From Thermoanaerobacterales bacterium 50_218 (GTDB lineage Bacteria; Bacillota; DSM-12270; Thermacetogeniales; Thermacetogeniaceae), in assembly GCA_001508855.1 (NCBI GenBank), contig LGFL01000001.1:1-64000 (forward strand): 64,000 nucleotides of DNA, written 5' to 3'. Position numbers and translations under genes: made by a program. Positions 33,801 to 56,940 of this stretch are shown here, piece by piece; the stretch's first letter is position 1, and each line of letters opens with the position of its first letter. The notes under the pieces were generated by a model. That model was not told the origin of the DNA. It did no database searches and saw only the letters and a list, made by a program, of their open reading frames with translations.

Positions 33801-34958
33801 GTGATCGCTTTGAAAAGGCAGATGACCAGGAAAATCTACCTTGGAAAGGTTCCTGTTGGCGGTGGTTCCCCTGTTACTGTCCAGTCGATGACCAAGACAG
33901 ATACGAGGGATGTTAGAGCAACCATTAACCAGATTCGGGAACTGGAAGCACTTGGTTGTGATATTGTGCGGGTTGCTGTTCCCGATGATGAAGCTGCGAA
34001 GGCTCTGGCTGAAATTAAGAAAGAGATTCAGATTCCTCTTGTTGCCGATGTTCACTTTGACTACAGACTGGCAATTCTGGCGATCGAGAGCGGTGCTGAC
34101 GGGATCAGGATTAACCCCGGGAACATCAGGAAACAGGAGCATGTTCGGGAGGTTGTCAGAGCCGCTTCTGAGCGGCAAGTACCGATCCGAGTTGGAGTTA
34201 ACGCCGGTTCCCTCCACCGTCAGTATCTCGAAAAGTATGGGCGAACACCTCGGGCCTTGGTGGAGAGTGCGCTATCGCACGTTGCTTTGCTGGAAAAAGA
34301 AGGTTACTTTAACCTCAAGATTTCGGTTAAAGCATCGAGCGTGATGATGACAATCGAAGCCTACAGGCTCTTGGCCGAGCGTGTTGAGTATCCTCTCCAT
34401 TTGGGGGTAACCGAGGCAGGTGGTCCTTGGGCAGGAACGATCAAGTCAGCGATAGGAATTGGAACCCTACTTGCAGAAGGTATTGGGGATACTATTCGCG
34501 TTTCGTTGACTGCTCCTCCTCATGAAGAAGTCAAAGTAGGGATCGCCATTCTCCGTTCTTTGGGCCTGCGGAAGCAGGGGATTGAGCTTATTTCCTGCCC
34601 TACCTGTGGCAGGTGCCAGTTTGATTTGTTTGCGGTTGCGAGGGCTGTTGAGGAGAGATTACCTAATGTAGAGAAGCCGCTTAAAGTAGCGATTATGGGC
34701 TGCACGGTGAACGGCCCCGGGGAAGCGAGAGAGGCCGATGTCGGAATAGCTGGAGGAAAGGGATGTGGTTTGCTTTTCAAGAAGGGTAAACCGATTAGGA
34801 AAGTCGCTGAAGCTCAACTAGTCGATGTCCTCCTCGCTGAGATAGAAGAAATGTTGGGAACTGGGGTCGGTGAACAAGAAATTCTTAGTGGGAGGCTCGA
34901 TGATAGGGATGCGGGTAACTCAGACCTTGATTCCGACACTCCGAGAGGTTCCTGCTGA
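33801..34958 (+). CDS. ispG: 4-hydroxy-3-methylbut-2-enyl diphosphate synthase
   Basis: 385 residues. The TIM-barrel N-terminus ([14 protein letters not shown]) is followed by the C-terminal iron-sulfur region with [10 protein letters not shown] and [16 protein letters not shown]. It carries out the penultimate step of the MEP pathway using a 4Fe-4S cluster. GTG 33801 directly follows the rseP stop; TTG 33810 is an alternative. The last 30 or so residues are acidic and lie beyond the usual family end. They run 59 nt into proS. Confidence 0.95.
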
Positions 34959-36639
34959 GGCTGACACAGTCAGTCATCAGCTTCTTTTGAGAGCCGGGAT
35001 GTTGCGGAAGGTGGCTTCTGGTATCTACACACTTCTTCCCCTCGGCTACAGGGTAGTGATGAAGATCGAACAGATTATCAGGGAAGAAATGAACCGGGCA
35101 GGAGGAGTGGAACTCCTTATGCCGATTATCCAGCCTGCAGAGATATGGCATGAGACGGGACGCTGGGATGTTTATGGGCCGGAGATGTTCCGTCTCCGCG
35201 ATCGGCATGGCCGTGATTTTTGTTTGGGTCCGACGCATGAAGAACTGATCACAGATATTATCAGAAATGAAGTAAAGTCGTATCGCCAGTTGCCTCTCTT
35301 GCTATATCAGATTCAGAACAAGTATCGGGACGAAAAGAGACCGCGTTTTGGTCTTATGCGTGCCCGCGAGTTTATTATGAAAGACCTCTACTCGTTCGAC
35401 AAAGATGAAGCAGGGTTAGAGGTCAGCTACCAGAAGATGTACGAAGCCTACTGCCGCGTCTTCAAAAGGTGTGGGCTCGACTTCCGGGTGGTTGAGGCAG
35501 ATCCTGGGGCTATTGGTGGAGGGGAAACCCACGAGTTCATGGTTTTGGCGGATACCGGGGAATCAAAAGTAGTTTTCTGCACCTCTTGTGATTATGCAGC
35601 CAATGTGGAAAAGGCTCCATGTGATCCCCAGATCATTCCGTCCGAGGAAAATCCCCGACCCCTGGAAATGGTAGCAACACCCGACATGCGGACGGTCAAG
35701 GAGGTTGCCGATTATCTTGGAGTTCCTAGTCATCAGTTGATTAAAACAATGTTCTATAAGGTCGACGGAGAATACGTGGCTGTGCTTGTTCGTGGTGACC
35801 GGGTTGTTAATGAAACTAAAGTAAAGAATTTCCTGGGAGCCACTAGTGTGGAGATCGCTTCCGAAGATGAAGTCATGGAAGCGTTTGGTGTTCCTCTCGG
35901 CTATGCAGGCCCTGTCGGCTTGCAGGAAAAGGACAAGATTAAGGTCATTGGTGACCATGAAGTCAGGTACCTGGTGAATGCTGTTACAGGTGCCAATAAG
36001 GAAGGTTACCATTATAGGAATGTAAACACCGGCCGCGACTATCAGGTTGATGCCTGGGCCGACCTCAGGGTTGCTGGTGCCGGAGATCTCTGTCCACGCT
36101 GCAAGGCCCCTTTTCAGGCAAAACGCGGGATTGAAGTTGGGCAGATCTTCAAGCTGGGGGTAAAATATAGTAAGGCACTCGGGGCAACGGTTCTAAACGA
36201 AAATGGGAAAGAGGTTCCCATTGTCATGGGGTGCTATGGAATCGGGGTCACCCGAACGATGGCTGCAGCCGTGGAACAGAACCATGATGAGGATGGGATC
36301 ATCTGGCCGCCTTCCATTGCTCCTTATGAGGTCGTGGTCATTCCCGTCAGCCACAGGGATATGCTCCAGGTGAGGATGGCTGAGGAAGTTTACCAGAGCC
36401 TTGCTGCTGCTGGGATTGATGTCATTTATGATGACCGTCCCGAACGCCCTGGAGTAAAGTTTAAAGATGCCGACTTGATCGGTTATCCGGTGCGGATCGT
36501 TATTGGGAGCCGTGCCGTGGAGGACGGCTTGGTTGAGATCAAGTGGCGGGCTTCTAAAGAGATCCTCTATAAGAGCAAAGAGGAACTTGTTCCCTATTTG
36601 CGCAGTTCTTTGGAAAGATCGAAAAACAATTGCATTTGA
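34900..36639 (+). CDS. proS: Prolyl-tRNA synthetase, bacterial type with editing domain
   Basis: 579 residues. Class II motifs 1-3 are seen ([42 protein letters not shown]; the [15 protein letters not shown] block). The INS cis-editing domain lies at about 220-375 ([20 protein letters not shown]). The anticodon-binding domain ends the protein. ATG 34900 has GGAGG at 34891-34895; ATG 34909 also fits family starts. The gene begins inside the ispG 3' end. Confidence 0.96.
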
Positions 36640-36659
36640 GGCACTTGTGCTAAAAAAAG

Positions 36660-36688
36660 TTGCAGAGAAAGGAACAGTTTGTTATAAT
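36660..36688 (+). promoter_or_regulatory. Sigma-A promoter of the rimP-nusA-infB operon
   Basis: TTGCAG (36660-36665), a 17-nt spacer and a perfect TATAAT (36683-36688). It lies just after proS and 106 nt before rimP. Confidence 0.88.
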
Positions 36689-36729
36689 TCTCTTAGCGTG
36701 TGGAGAATTGGACGTTTTCGTGAAGGAGT

Positions 36730-36757
36730 GAAAGAGTGGGTTGGAGCCCACTCTTTC
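36730..36757 (+). promoter_or_regulatory. Leader hairpin upstream of rimP
   Basis: A perfect 11-bp stem GAAAGAGTGGG (36730-36740) and CCCACTCTTTC (36747-36757), with a 6-nt loop. Only a weak T-rich stretch follows. It resembles the AGAGTGGG-type hairpin found before rimP (ylxS) in many Firmicutes. It may attenuate or stabilise the nusA operon transcript. Confidence 0.65.
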
Positions 36758-36793
36758 AAATTTGTGAGTTCGTTTTGTTTGGGGGGTTACTTA

Positions 36794-37255
36794 TTGAAAG
36801 CAAGTCACATTTGCGAAACTGTTGCCAAGGTGCTGCAACCATTTCTGCAGGACCACGAACTGGAACTCGTCGATATCGAGTATAAAAAGGAAGGTCGGAA
36901 GTGGTTTCTCCGGGTGTTCATTGATAAACCAGGTGGTGTTCAGATCAGTGATTGCGAAGTGGTAAGTGAATTCTTGAGCCTGAGGCTTGATGCCCTTGAC
37001 CTCATACCTCATCACTACATTCTTGAGGTTTCATCACCTGGTGTCGAGAGACCCCTCAAAAAACCTCAGGATTTTGTCAGGTTTAAGGGTTCTCGGGTTT
37101 TTGTGAAGACATTCGCGCCTGTTGAAGGCCAGAAACAATTTGAGGGCACTTTGGTCGACTTTATCGATAACCAGGTAGTTTTGGAAACAGAGACAGGAAA
37201 AATAAATCTCCCGTATGAACTCGTTGCCCAGGCACGGCTGAAAGTGTTTTCTTAA
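36794..37255 (+). CDS. rimP: Ribosome maturation factor RimP
   Basis: 153 residues. The family patterns LELVDIEYKKEGRKWFLRVFID and LEVSSPGVERPLKK are present, with a C-terminal SH3-like barrel. It helps mature the 30S subunit. TTG 36794 is chosen since GGGGGG (36781-36786) is about 7 nt upstream and the family starts here. A much longer in-frame reading would run back through the promoter and hairpin. Confidence 0.93.
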   Translation: MKASHICETVAKVLQPFLQDHELELVDIEYKKEGRKWFLRVFIDKPGGVQISDCEVVSEFLSLRLDALDLIPHHYILEVSSPGVERPLKKPQDFVRFKGSRVFVKTFAPVEGQKQFEGTLVDFIDNQVVLETETGKINLPYELVAQARLKVFS

Positions 37256-37309
37256 GTAGACCTTCATGCTGCTCATGCGGCACCATCAAAAGTACGAAAA
37301 TAAAGGGTT

Positions 37310-37505
37310 ATCCTTGCAGGCGAAGCGACCTTATGGAGGTTGTTACCTCGCCCTTGACGAGGAGCAGCTAACGGCAGCCGAATCGAAACAGGAAGTTAAG
37401 ATAGGCGACTATGCGCCACGGATGGCGTCATAGGAGCCGGTCGGCTGCCGTCTGCGACAAGTCTTAGGGCGAGTTCAACCGCAGTACGAGAGCGAGCGCA
37501 AGGAT
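37310..37505 (+). ncRNA. Unassigned multi-helix structured RNA between rimP and nusA
   Basis: The rimP-nusA spacer is 302 nt and holds no convincing gene. It folds into a closed domain. P1 is 37310-37317 with 37498-37505 (ATCCTTGC/GCAAGGAT). P2 is 37347-37354 with 37466-37473 (CTCGCCCT/AGGGCGAG). P3 is 37371-37381 with 37441-37451 (11 bp), continued by 37364-37367 with 37453-37456. P4 is the hairpin 37409-37433 with loop CGGA. Competing pairings (37336-37340 with 37345-37349; 37346-37350 with 37358-37362) suggest a switch or pseudoknot. It does not match T-box, lysine, cobalamin, c-di-GMP or glmS cores as I know them. A HEARO/omega-RNA-like relic or a nusA leader element are both possible. 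Confidence 0.6.
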
Positions 37506-37557
37506 GGACTGGATCAATTTTTCAGGGCAGGATTTCAGGAAAGGGGTGAAAAAGAAC

Positions 37558-38640
37558 TTGAATTCAGAGTTTATCAGTGCCTTAAGGGAAATTGAGAAAG
37601 AAAAGGGAATTGGGATGGATACTCTTATAGAGGCAATTGAAGCAGCACTCCTTTCTGCATACAGGAAGAACTTTGGAAGTGCTCAGAATGCTCACATAGA
37701 AATCAACCGAGAAACCGGAGAAATCAGGGTATTCGCCAGGAAAACGGTTGTCGAGGAAGAAAAGGACCCGAGAAATGAAATTTCGCTGGAAAACGCCCGT
37801 GCGATTAATCCTCAGGTGAATCTTGGAGATAAGATTGAGGTTGAGGTTACACCTAGAGATTTTGGAAGGATTGCAGCTCAAACTGCCAAACAAGTCGTCG
37901 TCCAGAGGATTAGGGAGGCAGAAAGAGGGGTTATCTACGAAGAGTTCGTGAACAAAGAAGGAGACATCGTTACTGGTATCGTTCGGCGTCAGGAAGGGAA
38001 AATTGTTTTTATCGATCTCGGTCGTACAGAGGCAATCCTGGCACCTTCGGAACAAGTTCCCACCGAAAAATACGTCCGTGGTGATAGGCTCAAGACGTAT
38101 GTCGTTGAGGTCAGGAAGACGACGAAAGGTCCCTTGATCCTCGTTTCCAGAACTCACCCTGGGCTGCTCAAGCGGCTGTTGGAGCTTGAGGTTCCGGAAA
38201 TTTATGAGGGGGTTGTTGAATTAAAGGCTATTGCCCGCGAGCCAGGAGTGCGTTCCAAGATTGCCGTGCACTCACGGGACGAGAACGTCGATCCTGTTGG
38301 TGCCTGTGTTGGTCCCAAGGGGATGCGTATTCAGGCTATTGTCAACGAACTCCGCGGCGAAAAGATAGATGTGATCAAGTGGGATAGTGACCCTCAAGTT
38401 TTCATTGCCAATGCTCTTAGTCCGGCAAAGGTAATCTCTGTAAAGATTGATGAGAACGAAAAAGCGGCGAGGGTCATTGTTCCTGATTATCAGTTGTCGC
38501 TGGCAATAGGTAAAGAAGGACAGAATGCTCGGTTGGCAGCAAAACTCACTGGCTGGAAGATCGATATCAAGAGTGAGTCCCAAGTTGCTGGTGAAGAGAC
38601 CAGTGGCTCTCAAGATGAGGTGAAAATTTCTGATGGCTAG
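37558..38640 (+). CDS. nusA: Transcription termination/antitermination factor NusA
   Basis: 360 residues, the shorter Firmicute form without C-terminal acidic repeats. The N-terminal RNA polymerase-binding domain ([27 protein letters not shown]), S1 domain (about 135-200), and KH1/KH2 ([36 protein letters not shown]) are present in order. TTG 37558 is chosen because the family begins M-N-x-E-F and AGGAAAGGGG lies upstream; GTG 37546 and ATG 37504 are longer options. It lies downstream of the structured spacer. Confidence 0.95.
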
Positions 38641-38914
38641 GGTAAAAAAAATTCCGCAACGGATTTGTGTTGGATGCAGGCAAACGCGGGAAAAAAGGGA
38701 AATGCTCCGGATCGTCCGCACCCCTGATTACCAGGTAGTTATTGATCCCACGGGAAAACGATCAGGGAGAGGTGCGTATATCTGCAAGGATCCCAAGTGT
38801 CTAGAGGCCGCCCTGAAGCAGGGACAACTTCAGCGTGCCTTGAAGGTAGAGATTCCTGAGGAGCTTGTTGAGGAACTGCGCAGGAAAATTGCTCAAGAAT
38901 CTAAAGATTTCTGA
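38633..38914 (+). CDS. rnpM: RnpM/YlxR family RNA-binding protein
   Basis: 93 residues. The YlxR (DUF448) signature RICVGCRQTREKREMLRIVR, then GKRSGRGAYICKDPKCLEAALK, is clear. Recent work names the Bacillus protein RnpM because it binds RNase P RNA. ATG 38633 overlaps the nusA stop by 8 nt. The L7Ae-like ylxQ gene that usually follows is absent. Confidence 0.93.
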   Translation: MARVKKIPQRICVGCRQTREKREMLRIVRTPDYQVVIDPTGKRSGRGAYICKDPKCLEAALKQGQLQRALKVEIPEELVEELRRKIAQESKDF

Positions 38915-38929
38915 AATGGGGGTGAGCAA

Positions 38930-41128
38930 ATGGCCAAAACTCGTGTTTATGAGCTGGCACGAGAGCTAGAAATAAACAGTAAGGATCTCTTGGTCACACT
39001 CCACCAGATGGGTTTGATGGCCAAAAACCATATGAGCACCCTGGATGATGAGGAAGTGAGGAAAGTCAAGGAGGTCTTTGCCAACAAGCGAAAGAAAGAG
39101 AAGCCAAAGTTTCGACATAAAGAACATGAAGAAGTAAGAAAAGGGGCTAAGAAAGAAAGGAGGGAGAGAACGAGGAAATCGCCCGTCTCTCATGATGAGC
39201 ACACAGAAGATGAGGACTACATCCAGCGTCTTCAGGCCCGAAGAGAAGAAATCCGCCGCTCACAGGAAGAAGCCCAGAGAAAGCTCTTTTCTAAAGTTGT
39301 AGAGATCTCAGCGAAAGGCCGCCGCAAAAAGCGTAAGCACTCCAGTCGTGCTACCAGGGAAGTGACTGTTCCTGAGAAAATCACGATCGGCGAAAAAATC
39401 ATTGTCCAGGAACTGGCAGAACTTTTAAATGTTGATGCGAGTGAGGTCATTAAGAAACTGATCGAGCTAGGGGTAATGGCTTCTTTGAATCAAGAAATCG
39501 ACGGGGAGACTGCGGCCCTTGTTGCTGCCGAATTTGGGGCCGAGGCAGTGATTAAGTCGGAAACTGAGGAGCTTGAAGCGTTGATTGCCGATACACCAGA
39601 CGCTCCTGAAGACCTTGAGCCTAGACCCCCAGTGATCACGGTGATGGGTCATGTTGACCATGGGAAAACCTCGCTTCTTGATGCTATTAGGAAGACTAAT
39701 GTTGCTGCCACTGAGGCTGGGGGCATTACGCAGCACATTGGTGCCTATCAGGTAGAGGTCAAGGGCAAGAAGATCACTTTTCTGGATACACCTGGACACG
39801 AAGCCTTTACAGCGATGCGTGCTCGGGGTGCCCAGGTGACCGATATTGCTGTTCTGGTAGTGGCTGCAGACGATGGAGTGATGCCTCAGACCGTGGAGGC
39901 AATAAACCACGCTCGTGCTGCTGGGGTCCCCATTGTTGTGGCGATTAACAAGATTGACAAGCCACAGGCAAATCCTACTCGGGTGATGCAGCAACTGACA
40001 GAACACGGACTTGTCCCCGAAGAGTGGGGAGGAGACACGGTCTGTGTCCCGGTTTCTGCTGTTACCGGAGAGGGACTGGAACAGCTTTTGGAAATGCTGC
40101 TTTTGGTTGCCGAGATGGAGGAGTTGAAGGCAAACCCCCATCGTCCGGCACGGGGCACGGTAATTGAGGCCAAGCTGGATAAAGGAAGGGGTCCTGTAGC
40201 TACAGTCCTCGTTCAAAAGGGAACACTCCGTGTGGGAGATTATGTAATCGCGGGAACAACTCACGGACGCGTCAGGGCGATGATGGACTTTCGAGGTCAG
40301 AGAGTCAAGGAAGCTACCCCATCAACTCCTGTGGAAATTTTGGGTCTTTCTGACGTTCCCAATGCTGGTGATGCTTTTTGTGTTGTGGAAGACGAGAAAC
40401 TCGCCAGAGAAATCGTTGAAAAGAGAATTGAGGAACAGCGTCAGCGCAAAATTGCTGCTCCGGGCACTACTCTCGAAGACCTCTTCAAGAAGATTCAAGA
40501 AGGTGAAGTAAAAGAGCTAAACCTGATCATCAAGGCTGATGTTCAAGGAACCGTCGAGGCCTTAATTCAGGCTTTGAATAAATTGAGCACTCCAGAGGTC
40601 CGGGTCAATATCATCCATTCGGGTGTTGGTGCCATCACTGAGACCGATGTTATGCTCGCCAGTGCCTCCAAGGGGCTCATCATCGGGTTTAACGTGCGGC
40701 CTGATGCTAATGCTCGAAAGGCTGCCGAGGCTCAGAAGGTAGAAATCCGGCTCTATCGGGTTATCTATGATGTGGTTAAGGAAATCAAAGCCGCTCTTGA
40801 AGGCCTCCTCGAACCAGAGTATAAGGAGGTCGTCTTGGGAAGGGCTGAGGTTCGGGAAACTTTCCGGATTCCCAAGGTTGGAGTTGTGGCAGGTTGCTAT
40901 GTCACCGAGGGGAAGATCGTTCGTAGTGGCAAAGTTCGGGTAATCAGGGATGGTGTTGTCATTTATGAAGGAGCAATTGCTTCTCTCAAGCGTTTTAAGG
41001 ATGATGTCCGGGAAGTAGTTCAAGGTCATGAGTGTGGTGTGGGACTTGATAAGTTCCAGGATATCAAAAAGGGAGATGTGTTCGAGGTCTATACTGTTGA
41101 GGAAGTCAAGAAGGAACTGCCGACATGA
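38930..41128 (+). CDS. infB: Translation initiation factor IF-2
   Basis: 732 residues. The N-terminal IF2N domain ([21 protein letters not shown]) leads to a highly charged K/R/E region (about 55-150), a second IF2N, and the G domain from about residue 238 ([24 protein letters not shown]). Domains II-IV follow. It brings fMet-tRNA to the 30S subunit. The N-terminal part is short compared with Escherichia coli. Confidence 0.97.
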
Positions 41129-56852: not shown

Positions 56853-56940
56853 GCGGCTGTGGCGGAACTGGCAGACGCGCTAGACTCAGGATCTAGTGGG
56901 GAAAAACCCCGTGGGAGTTCAAATCTCCCCAGCCGCACCA
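56853..56940 (+). tRNA. tRNA-Leu (anticodon CAG)
   Basis: The acceptor stem is GCGGCTG (56853-56859) with CAGCCGC (56930-56936), with encoded CCA at the end. The anticodon stem CTAGA/TCTAG holds the loop CTCAGGA, giving anticodon CAG for CTG codons. A long variable arm (GGGGAAAAACCCC-type) marks a class II tRNA. The T loop GTTCAAATC is standard. Confidence 0.97.

What the first reader, a model, noticed from the sequence alone, without database searches (positions are those of the whole stretch)
37256..37557. Closed multi-helix RNA domain of unknown class between rimP and nusA
The spacer is about 300 nt inside an otherwise tightly packed operon. It folds into nested long-range helices: P1 (37310-37317 with 37498-37505), P2 (37347-37354 with 37466-37473), an 11-bp P3 (37371-37381 with 37441-37451) and P4 (37409-37433). 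P1 to P3 are perfect complements, which is unlikely by chance. Competing hairpins around 37336-37362 overlap P2, as in a switch or pseudoknot. It does not contain the conserved cores of the riboswitches I know. Possibilities are a new cis-regulator of nusA, a mobile-element guide RNA relic (HEARO/omega-RNA size, but no IscB gene nearby), or an intron fragment. I cannot choose between them from one sequence.
Basis: partly seen in the sequence, partly recalled or inferred. Interest (0 to 1): 0.85.

Follow-up and report, generated by a model that had tools for sequence, protein, structure and literature searches.

The report
Mobile TwoAYGGAY RNA between rimP and nusA
The folded RNA between rimP and nusA is one copy of a small jumping DNA element that carries a known but unexplained RNA (TwoAYGGAY, thought to bind the regulator CsrA); it matters because it suggests that such RNAs are spread around genomes by IS110-type transposons instead of being local switches of nusA.

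Summary
It is not an unknown class, and comparison gives no support for a nusA regulator. It matches Rfam RF01731 TwoAYGGAY (38.4 bits here, just under the 43-bit gathering score; sister copies pass it). It lies in a 271-bp dispersed element (37260-37530) inserted after rimP; in 17 relatives the spacer is 17-83 nt (31 nt here without the element). Related genomes carry many copies in random orientation. The element's ends match those of IS110 transposons in a related complete genome, where an IS110 and a sister mini-element occupy the same position in CRISPR repeats. The RNA lacks the donor guide found in those IS110 RNAs, so it is probably moved in trans. Both hairpin loops keep the GGA of CsrA sites, and 49 of 51 TwoAYGGAY genomes have csrA versus 236 of 348 others. 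CsrA binding was proposed in 2015 and is unproven. New here: the mobile, IS110-ended, multi-copy context and the csrA association.

The parts
37260..37530 (+). Whole inserted element (271 bp, IS110-like ends around a TwoAYGGAY RNA); AG core dinucleotide at both edges (37258-37259 and 37529-37530)
   Evidence: 80-91% identical copies of this unit in relatives end here; removal leaves a 31-nt spacer like that of relatives
37260..37297 (+). IS110-type left end with 5' hairpin (CATGCTGCTCATGCGGC) followed by CACCATCAAAAG..GAAAA
   Evidence: same layout as the left end of the G003 IS110 elements L142 and L162 (TAGAC..CATG-hairpin-CACCAACAGAGGATGAAAAT)
37515..37530 (+). IS110-type right end CAATTTTTCAGGGCAG
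   Evidence: TTTTCAGGGCAG is also the right end of the G003 IS110; the only match in the window without mismatch
37305..37505 (+). TwoAYGGAY-type RNA domain including its outer stem P1
   Evidence: Rfam RF01731 match 37331-37487, 38.4 bits, E 0.0017; covariation in 45 copies
37310..37317 (+). P1 5' arm (pairs with 37498-37505)
   Evidence: helix 1, 4 of 5 pairs with double changes
37498..37505 (+). P1 3' arm
37347..37354 (+). P2 5' arm (pairs with 37466-37473)
37466..37473 (+). P2 3' arm
37371..37381 (+). P3 5' arm (pairs with 37441-37451)
   Evidence: helix 6, 5 of 8 pairs with double changes
37441..37451 (+). P3 3' arm
37382..37402 (+).
   Evidence: helix 7, 5 of 6 pairs with double changes; GGA kept in 42 of 45 copies
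37409..37433 (+).
   Evidence: GGA kept in 43 of 45 copies; helix 8
37247..37259 (+). Left side of the insertion site, TTTTCTTAAGTAG, ending in the AG core; overlaps the last codons of rimP, whose stop is intact
   Evidence: copies share a T-rich left flank then G-Y-A-G, with no preference on the right

Best explanation
The spacer holds one insertion of a 271-bp non-autonomous mobile element with IS110-type ends around a TwoAYGGAY RNA. Shown: the RNA family, the dispersed repeat nature, the clean insertion, the conserved structure with GGA loops, and the shared ends with IS110. Inferred: an IS110 recombinase loaded with a bridge RNA encoded elsewhere recognises the RE-AG-LE junction of a circular copy and inserts it at a T-rich site ending in AG. 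Inferred, weaker: the transcribed RNA offers two GGA hairpins to a CsrA dimer and so titrates CsrA, the whole family of copies acting as a dispersed decoy. Any effect on nusA here would be incidental, from being co-transcribed with the operon.
For: RF01731 match E 0.0017 here; the same family in 14 of 61 relatives with up to 20 copies, 11 genomes over the gathering score, 0 of 14 control genomes. Whole element in 80-91% identical dispersed copies. Relatives lack it between rimP and nusA: 17-83 nt spacers versus 31 nt here after removal. Covariation 0/500 shuffles. Same ends on IS110 elements of G003; IS110 twice and a mini-element once in the same CRISPR-repeat position. Target logo T-rich..GYAG. 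GGA loops 42/45 and 43/45; csrA in 49/51 versus 236/348 genomes, Fisher 2.7e-6. CsrA binding proposed for this family by PMC4333381.
Against: The densest carriers (G002, G009, G014) have no detectable IS110 now, so their mobiliser is lost or different. The core also occurs in the reverse orientation between IS110 ends, and in other genomes without such ends. The test of RNA versus DNA constraint (G-U 33 versus A-C 20 cells) is inconclusive. No promoter-like site was found around the element. The csrA association could follow motility or genome size. The left donor guide matches in only one of two IS110 elements.
Confidence: 0.75

Rival explanations
1. A cis-acting regulator of nusA, for example an attenuator or switch that senses a ligand, NusA or CsrA, selected at this site.
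For: It lies in the 5' leader of nusA in sense orientation; it is the only intact copy found in this genome, the others being truncated.
Against: Absent at this site in all 17 relatives in which both genes could be read; copies elsewhere lie next to unrelated genes in random orientation, 14/11/10/8; no terminator-like site on this strand in the spacer. The assembly has 121 contigs and may have lost other copies.
Confidence: 0.06
2. The RNA is itself an IS110 bridge RNA whose recombinase gene has been lost, carrying its own donor and target guides.
For: IS110-type ends and 5' hairpin; internal loops in the fold.
Against: No stretch matching the element's own ends beyond chance (longest 5 nt of the right end, p about 0.8), whereas two IS110 left-end RNAs carry an exact 8-nt copy of their right end that varies with it (CAGGGCAG or CAGGGTAG; p about 0.02 each); the core is found in both orientations relative to the ends.
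Confidence: 0.1
3. A purely selfish fold-back element in which the structure serves single-stranded DNA or transposition, with no host RNA-binding protein involved.
For: Dispersed copies, random orientation, G-U versus A-C test inconclusive, no promoter-like site found, other genomes show long locus-specific inverted arms.
Against: GGA loops conserved across copies while stems vary; csrA association.
Confidence: 0.35
4. HEARO/omega RNA or group I/II intron relic.
For: Size and mobile nature only.
Against: No Rfam match to any of these at E up to 5 over 34000-41000; IS110-type ends instead.
Confidence: 0.01

Closest known systems
Rfam RF01731 TwoAYGGAY RNA
   Same: Full-length covariance-model match; nested outer helices enclosing two hairpins with GGA-containing loops.
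   Different: Window copy 4.6 bits under the gathering score; first loop is CAGGAAG instead of AYGGAY. Rfam types the family as cis-regulatory; here it is a dispersed mobile cargo.
IS110-family insertion sequences and their miniature derivatives
   Same: Left-end hairpin and motif, right end TTTTCAGGGCAG, AG core, shared target position in G003.
   Different: No recombinase gene and no donor guide in the element.
CsrB/CsrC/RsmX/Y/Z-type CsrA-sequestering RNAs
   Same: GGA hairpin loops, here two, enough for one CsrA dimer.
   Different: Carried on mobile repeats in Firmicutes-like genomes; no binding or titration shown. The CsrA idea is from PMC4333381.
Bridge RNA / seekRNA of IS110
   Same: Comes with IS110-type ends and a 5' stem-loop.
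   Different: No guide complementarity to its own ends; core orientation not fixed.

Membership tests
Rfam TwoAYGGAY (RF01731) | Covariance-model score at or above the gathering cut-off (43 bits) | tested here: inconclusive
   38.4 bits, E 0.0017 for the window copy; sister copies in G003, 80-87% identical to it, reach 45-49 bits
Rfam TwoAYGGAY (RF01731) | Two adjacent hairpins with AYGGAY-like loops inside nested outer helices | tested here: met
   Loops CAGGAAG and CACGGATG; GGA in 42/45 and 43/45 copies; helices covary
CsrA-binding RNA | Two GGA hairpin loops | tested here: met
CsrA-binding RNA | csrA present in the genomes that carry it | tested here: met
   49 of 51 positives, also the window genome
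CsrA-binding RNA | Physical binding and titration of CsrA | not testable with these tools
   needs gel shift or CLIP
IS110-derived miniature element | Ends shared with an autonomous IS110 element | tested here: met
   G003 IS110 L142 and L162; Pfam PF01548 and PF02371 on the L142 ORF
IS110-derived miniature element | Dinucleotide core, no longer target duplication | tested here: met
   AG at both edges; no longer direct repeat at the window site
IS110-derived miniature element | Intact matching IS110 in the same genome | tested here: not met
   Window genome has only IS110 fragments without matching ends in the stretches read; assembly in 121 contigs
Bridge RNA | Loop sequence matching own donor ends | tested here: not met
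HEARO / omega RNA | Rfam HEARO match | tested here: not met
   none at E up to 5
nusA leader regulator | Conserved at rimP-nusA in relatives | tested here: not met
   0 of 17 spacers

The most novel reading that the evidence does not exclude
TwoAYGGAY RNAs form a mobile, dispersed CsrA-decoy system: IS110-type recombinases spread tens of RNA copies per genome, each with a pair of CsrA sites, so that transposon copy number tunes a global regulator; copies such as this one add a CsrA-binding leader to the gene where they land.
Probability: 0.25. Interest if true: 0.85.

Novelty: new variant of a known kind. Interest (0 to 1): 0.55.

Why it matters
TwoAYGGAY has been a family of unknown function since 2010, with an untested CsrA proposal. 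Showing that it travels on multi-copy elements with IS110-type ends, in genomes that nearly always have csrA, would explain its scattered distribution, argues that its 'cis-regulatory' label is misleading, and makes the CsrA-decoy idea directly testable. It also shows miniature IS110 elements that seem to depend on a bridge RNA supplied in trans.

Tried and rejected
IS200/IS605 (Y1 transposase) and RAYT as mobiliser: suspected from the end hairpins and absence of target duplication, but the Y1 loci of 12 genomes do not carry the ends. HEARO, introns, riboswitches: no Rfam match. Plasmid collection: only weak partial matches. G-U versus A-C asymmetry as proof of RNA-level selection: inconclusive. 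Orientation bias towards sense transcription: none. Own-bridge-RNA idea: no guide match. A first attempt to find rimP in the relatives used a wrong reading frame and was redone.

Full report
Observation. The rimP-nusA spacer runs from 37256 to 37557 (rimP stop TAA 37253-37255, nusA start TTG 37558).

Class. Scanning 34000-41000 against all of Rfam gave one significant match: RF01731 TwoAYGGAY, 37331-37487 +, 38.4 bits, E 0.0017, full length but under the 43-bit gathering score; at gathering thresholds the window therefore shows only a tRNA. In 61 relatives, 14 genomes match RF01731 and 11 exceed the cut-off, with up to 20 copies each; none of 14 control genomes match. Sister copies 80-91% identical to the window element include ones above the cut-off, so membership follows by homology.

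Dispersed element. A 275-base query (37257-37531) finds at least ten matches in each of several relatives (G002, G003, G009, G014) and, in the window's own genome, the one intact copy plus partial ones that keep one or both ends. Similarity stops abruptly at the same two points in many copies. In the 17 other genomes where rimP and nusA could both be read, the rimP-to-nusA spacer is 17-83 nt; removing 37260-37530 leaves 31 nt. Across 43 copies the orientation relative to flanking ORFs is random (14/11/10/8). This speaks against a conserved nusA leader.

Ends and mobiliser. In G003 (a complete 2,939,057-bp genome, Thermacetogenium phaeum by my memory of its length) the same ends (TAGAC..CATG-hairpin-CACCAACAGAGGATGAAAAT and TTTTCAGGGCAG) bound a 1.6-kb element with a 405-aa ORF, which is an IS110 recombinase (PF01548 E 1.3e-38, PF02371 E 8e-23). 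Two copies of it, and one mini-element of a sister type, sit at the same position of CRISPR repeats GTTTCAATTCCTCATAG^GTACGCTGAAAAC, which defines a 2-nt AG core. A second IS110 (L162) has the same left-end layout. Insertion sites of 23 copies show a T-rich left flank, then G-Y-A-G, resembling the right end, with no preference on the right. The left-end RNAs of the two IS110 elements contain an exact 8-nt copy of their own right end, and the copies vary together (CAGGGCAG and CAGGGTAG); the TwoAYGGAY elements have no such guide. Bridge RNA architecture is taken from PMC11208160. So the element is best read as a non-autonomous IS110 derivative moved in trans. Open points: G002, G009 and G014 have many copies but no IS110 now; the core occurs in reverse between IS110 ends, and without them in other genera, so the core is separable from this vehicle.

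Structure and loops. On 45 copies, the RNAalifold structure has 97.7% of cells paired, 20 of 41 pairs with changes on both sides, covariation score 0.222 versus 0.117 in shuffles (0/500), and slid versions far lower. The structure was derived from the same alignment and the copies are related, so the controls flatter it, but the counts of double changes are large. The GGA of hairpin loop 1 is kept in 42 of 45 copies and of loop 2 in 43 of 45, while the stems change.

CsrA. PMC4333381 proposed in 2015 that TwoAYGGAY binds CsrA, from its GGA loops. Here, among 399 genomes of the phylum, 49 of 51 with TwoAYGGAY have csrA versus 236 of 348 without (Fisher p 2.7e-6); the positives span 25 families. 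The two exceptions are G197 and G249 (the latter 75% complete). Motility or genome size could confound this, and genomes of one family are not independent. No binding data exist here, no promoter-like site was found, and the G-U versus A-C test does not separate RNA from DNA constraint.

Verdict. A real, conserved RNA structure, correctly seen; an already catalogued family; not a nusA regulator as far as comparison can tell. The new part is its mobile, IS110-ended, multi-copy context and the strong csrA association. No paper found in the held library connects TwoAYGGAY with IS110 or with mobile elements.

Noticed in passing
L142 (G003:C1:2439500-2450500) and L154: An IS110 element (two copies) and a miniature sister element are inserted at the identical position inside CRISPR-DR2 type repeats of a long array.
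   Followed up: partly
L148, L150, L154, L155, L156, L073 (G003): A second, longer structured RNA (called type B here) with the same IS110-type ends; shares outer motifs with TwoAYGGAY (GCGAGCGACCTATGGAAGG and GGGAGTCGAGCG) but has one very long hairpin; no Rfam match.
   Followed up: partly
L238-L242 (G136), L085, L086, L251 (G049): In these genomes most TwoAYGGAY copies lie between two copies of a short terminator-like hairpin that differs from locus to locus (direct repeats of 15-29 nt, one pair inverted in L240), as if the target hairpin were duplicated on insertion.
   Followed up: partly
L232, L233, L236, L237 (G259): TwoAYGGAY copies have outer inverted arms of 33-40 bp that are 97-100% complementary within a copy but differ between copies.
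   Followed up: no
L203 (G014:C19:14400-14671): One TwoAYGGAY element lies about 370 bp from csrA itself.
   Followed up: no
L142 and L162 (G003): Left-end RNAs of two IS110 elements carry an exact copy of their right end, with a matching C/T change, as expected of a bridge RNA donor loop.
   Followed up: yes
L081 4439-4536 (G022): Guanidine-I riboswitch-like match, 47.4 bits, below the gathering score.
   Followed up: no
window 56853-56937: tRNA gene, the only match at Rfam gathering thresholds in the window.
   Followed up: no
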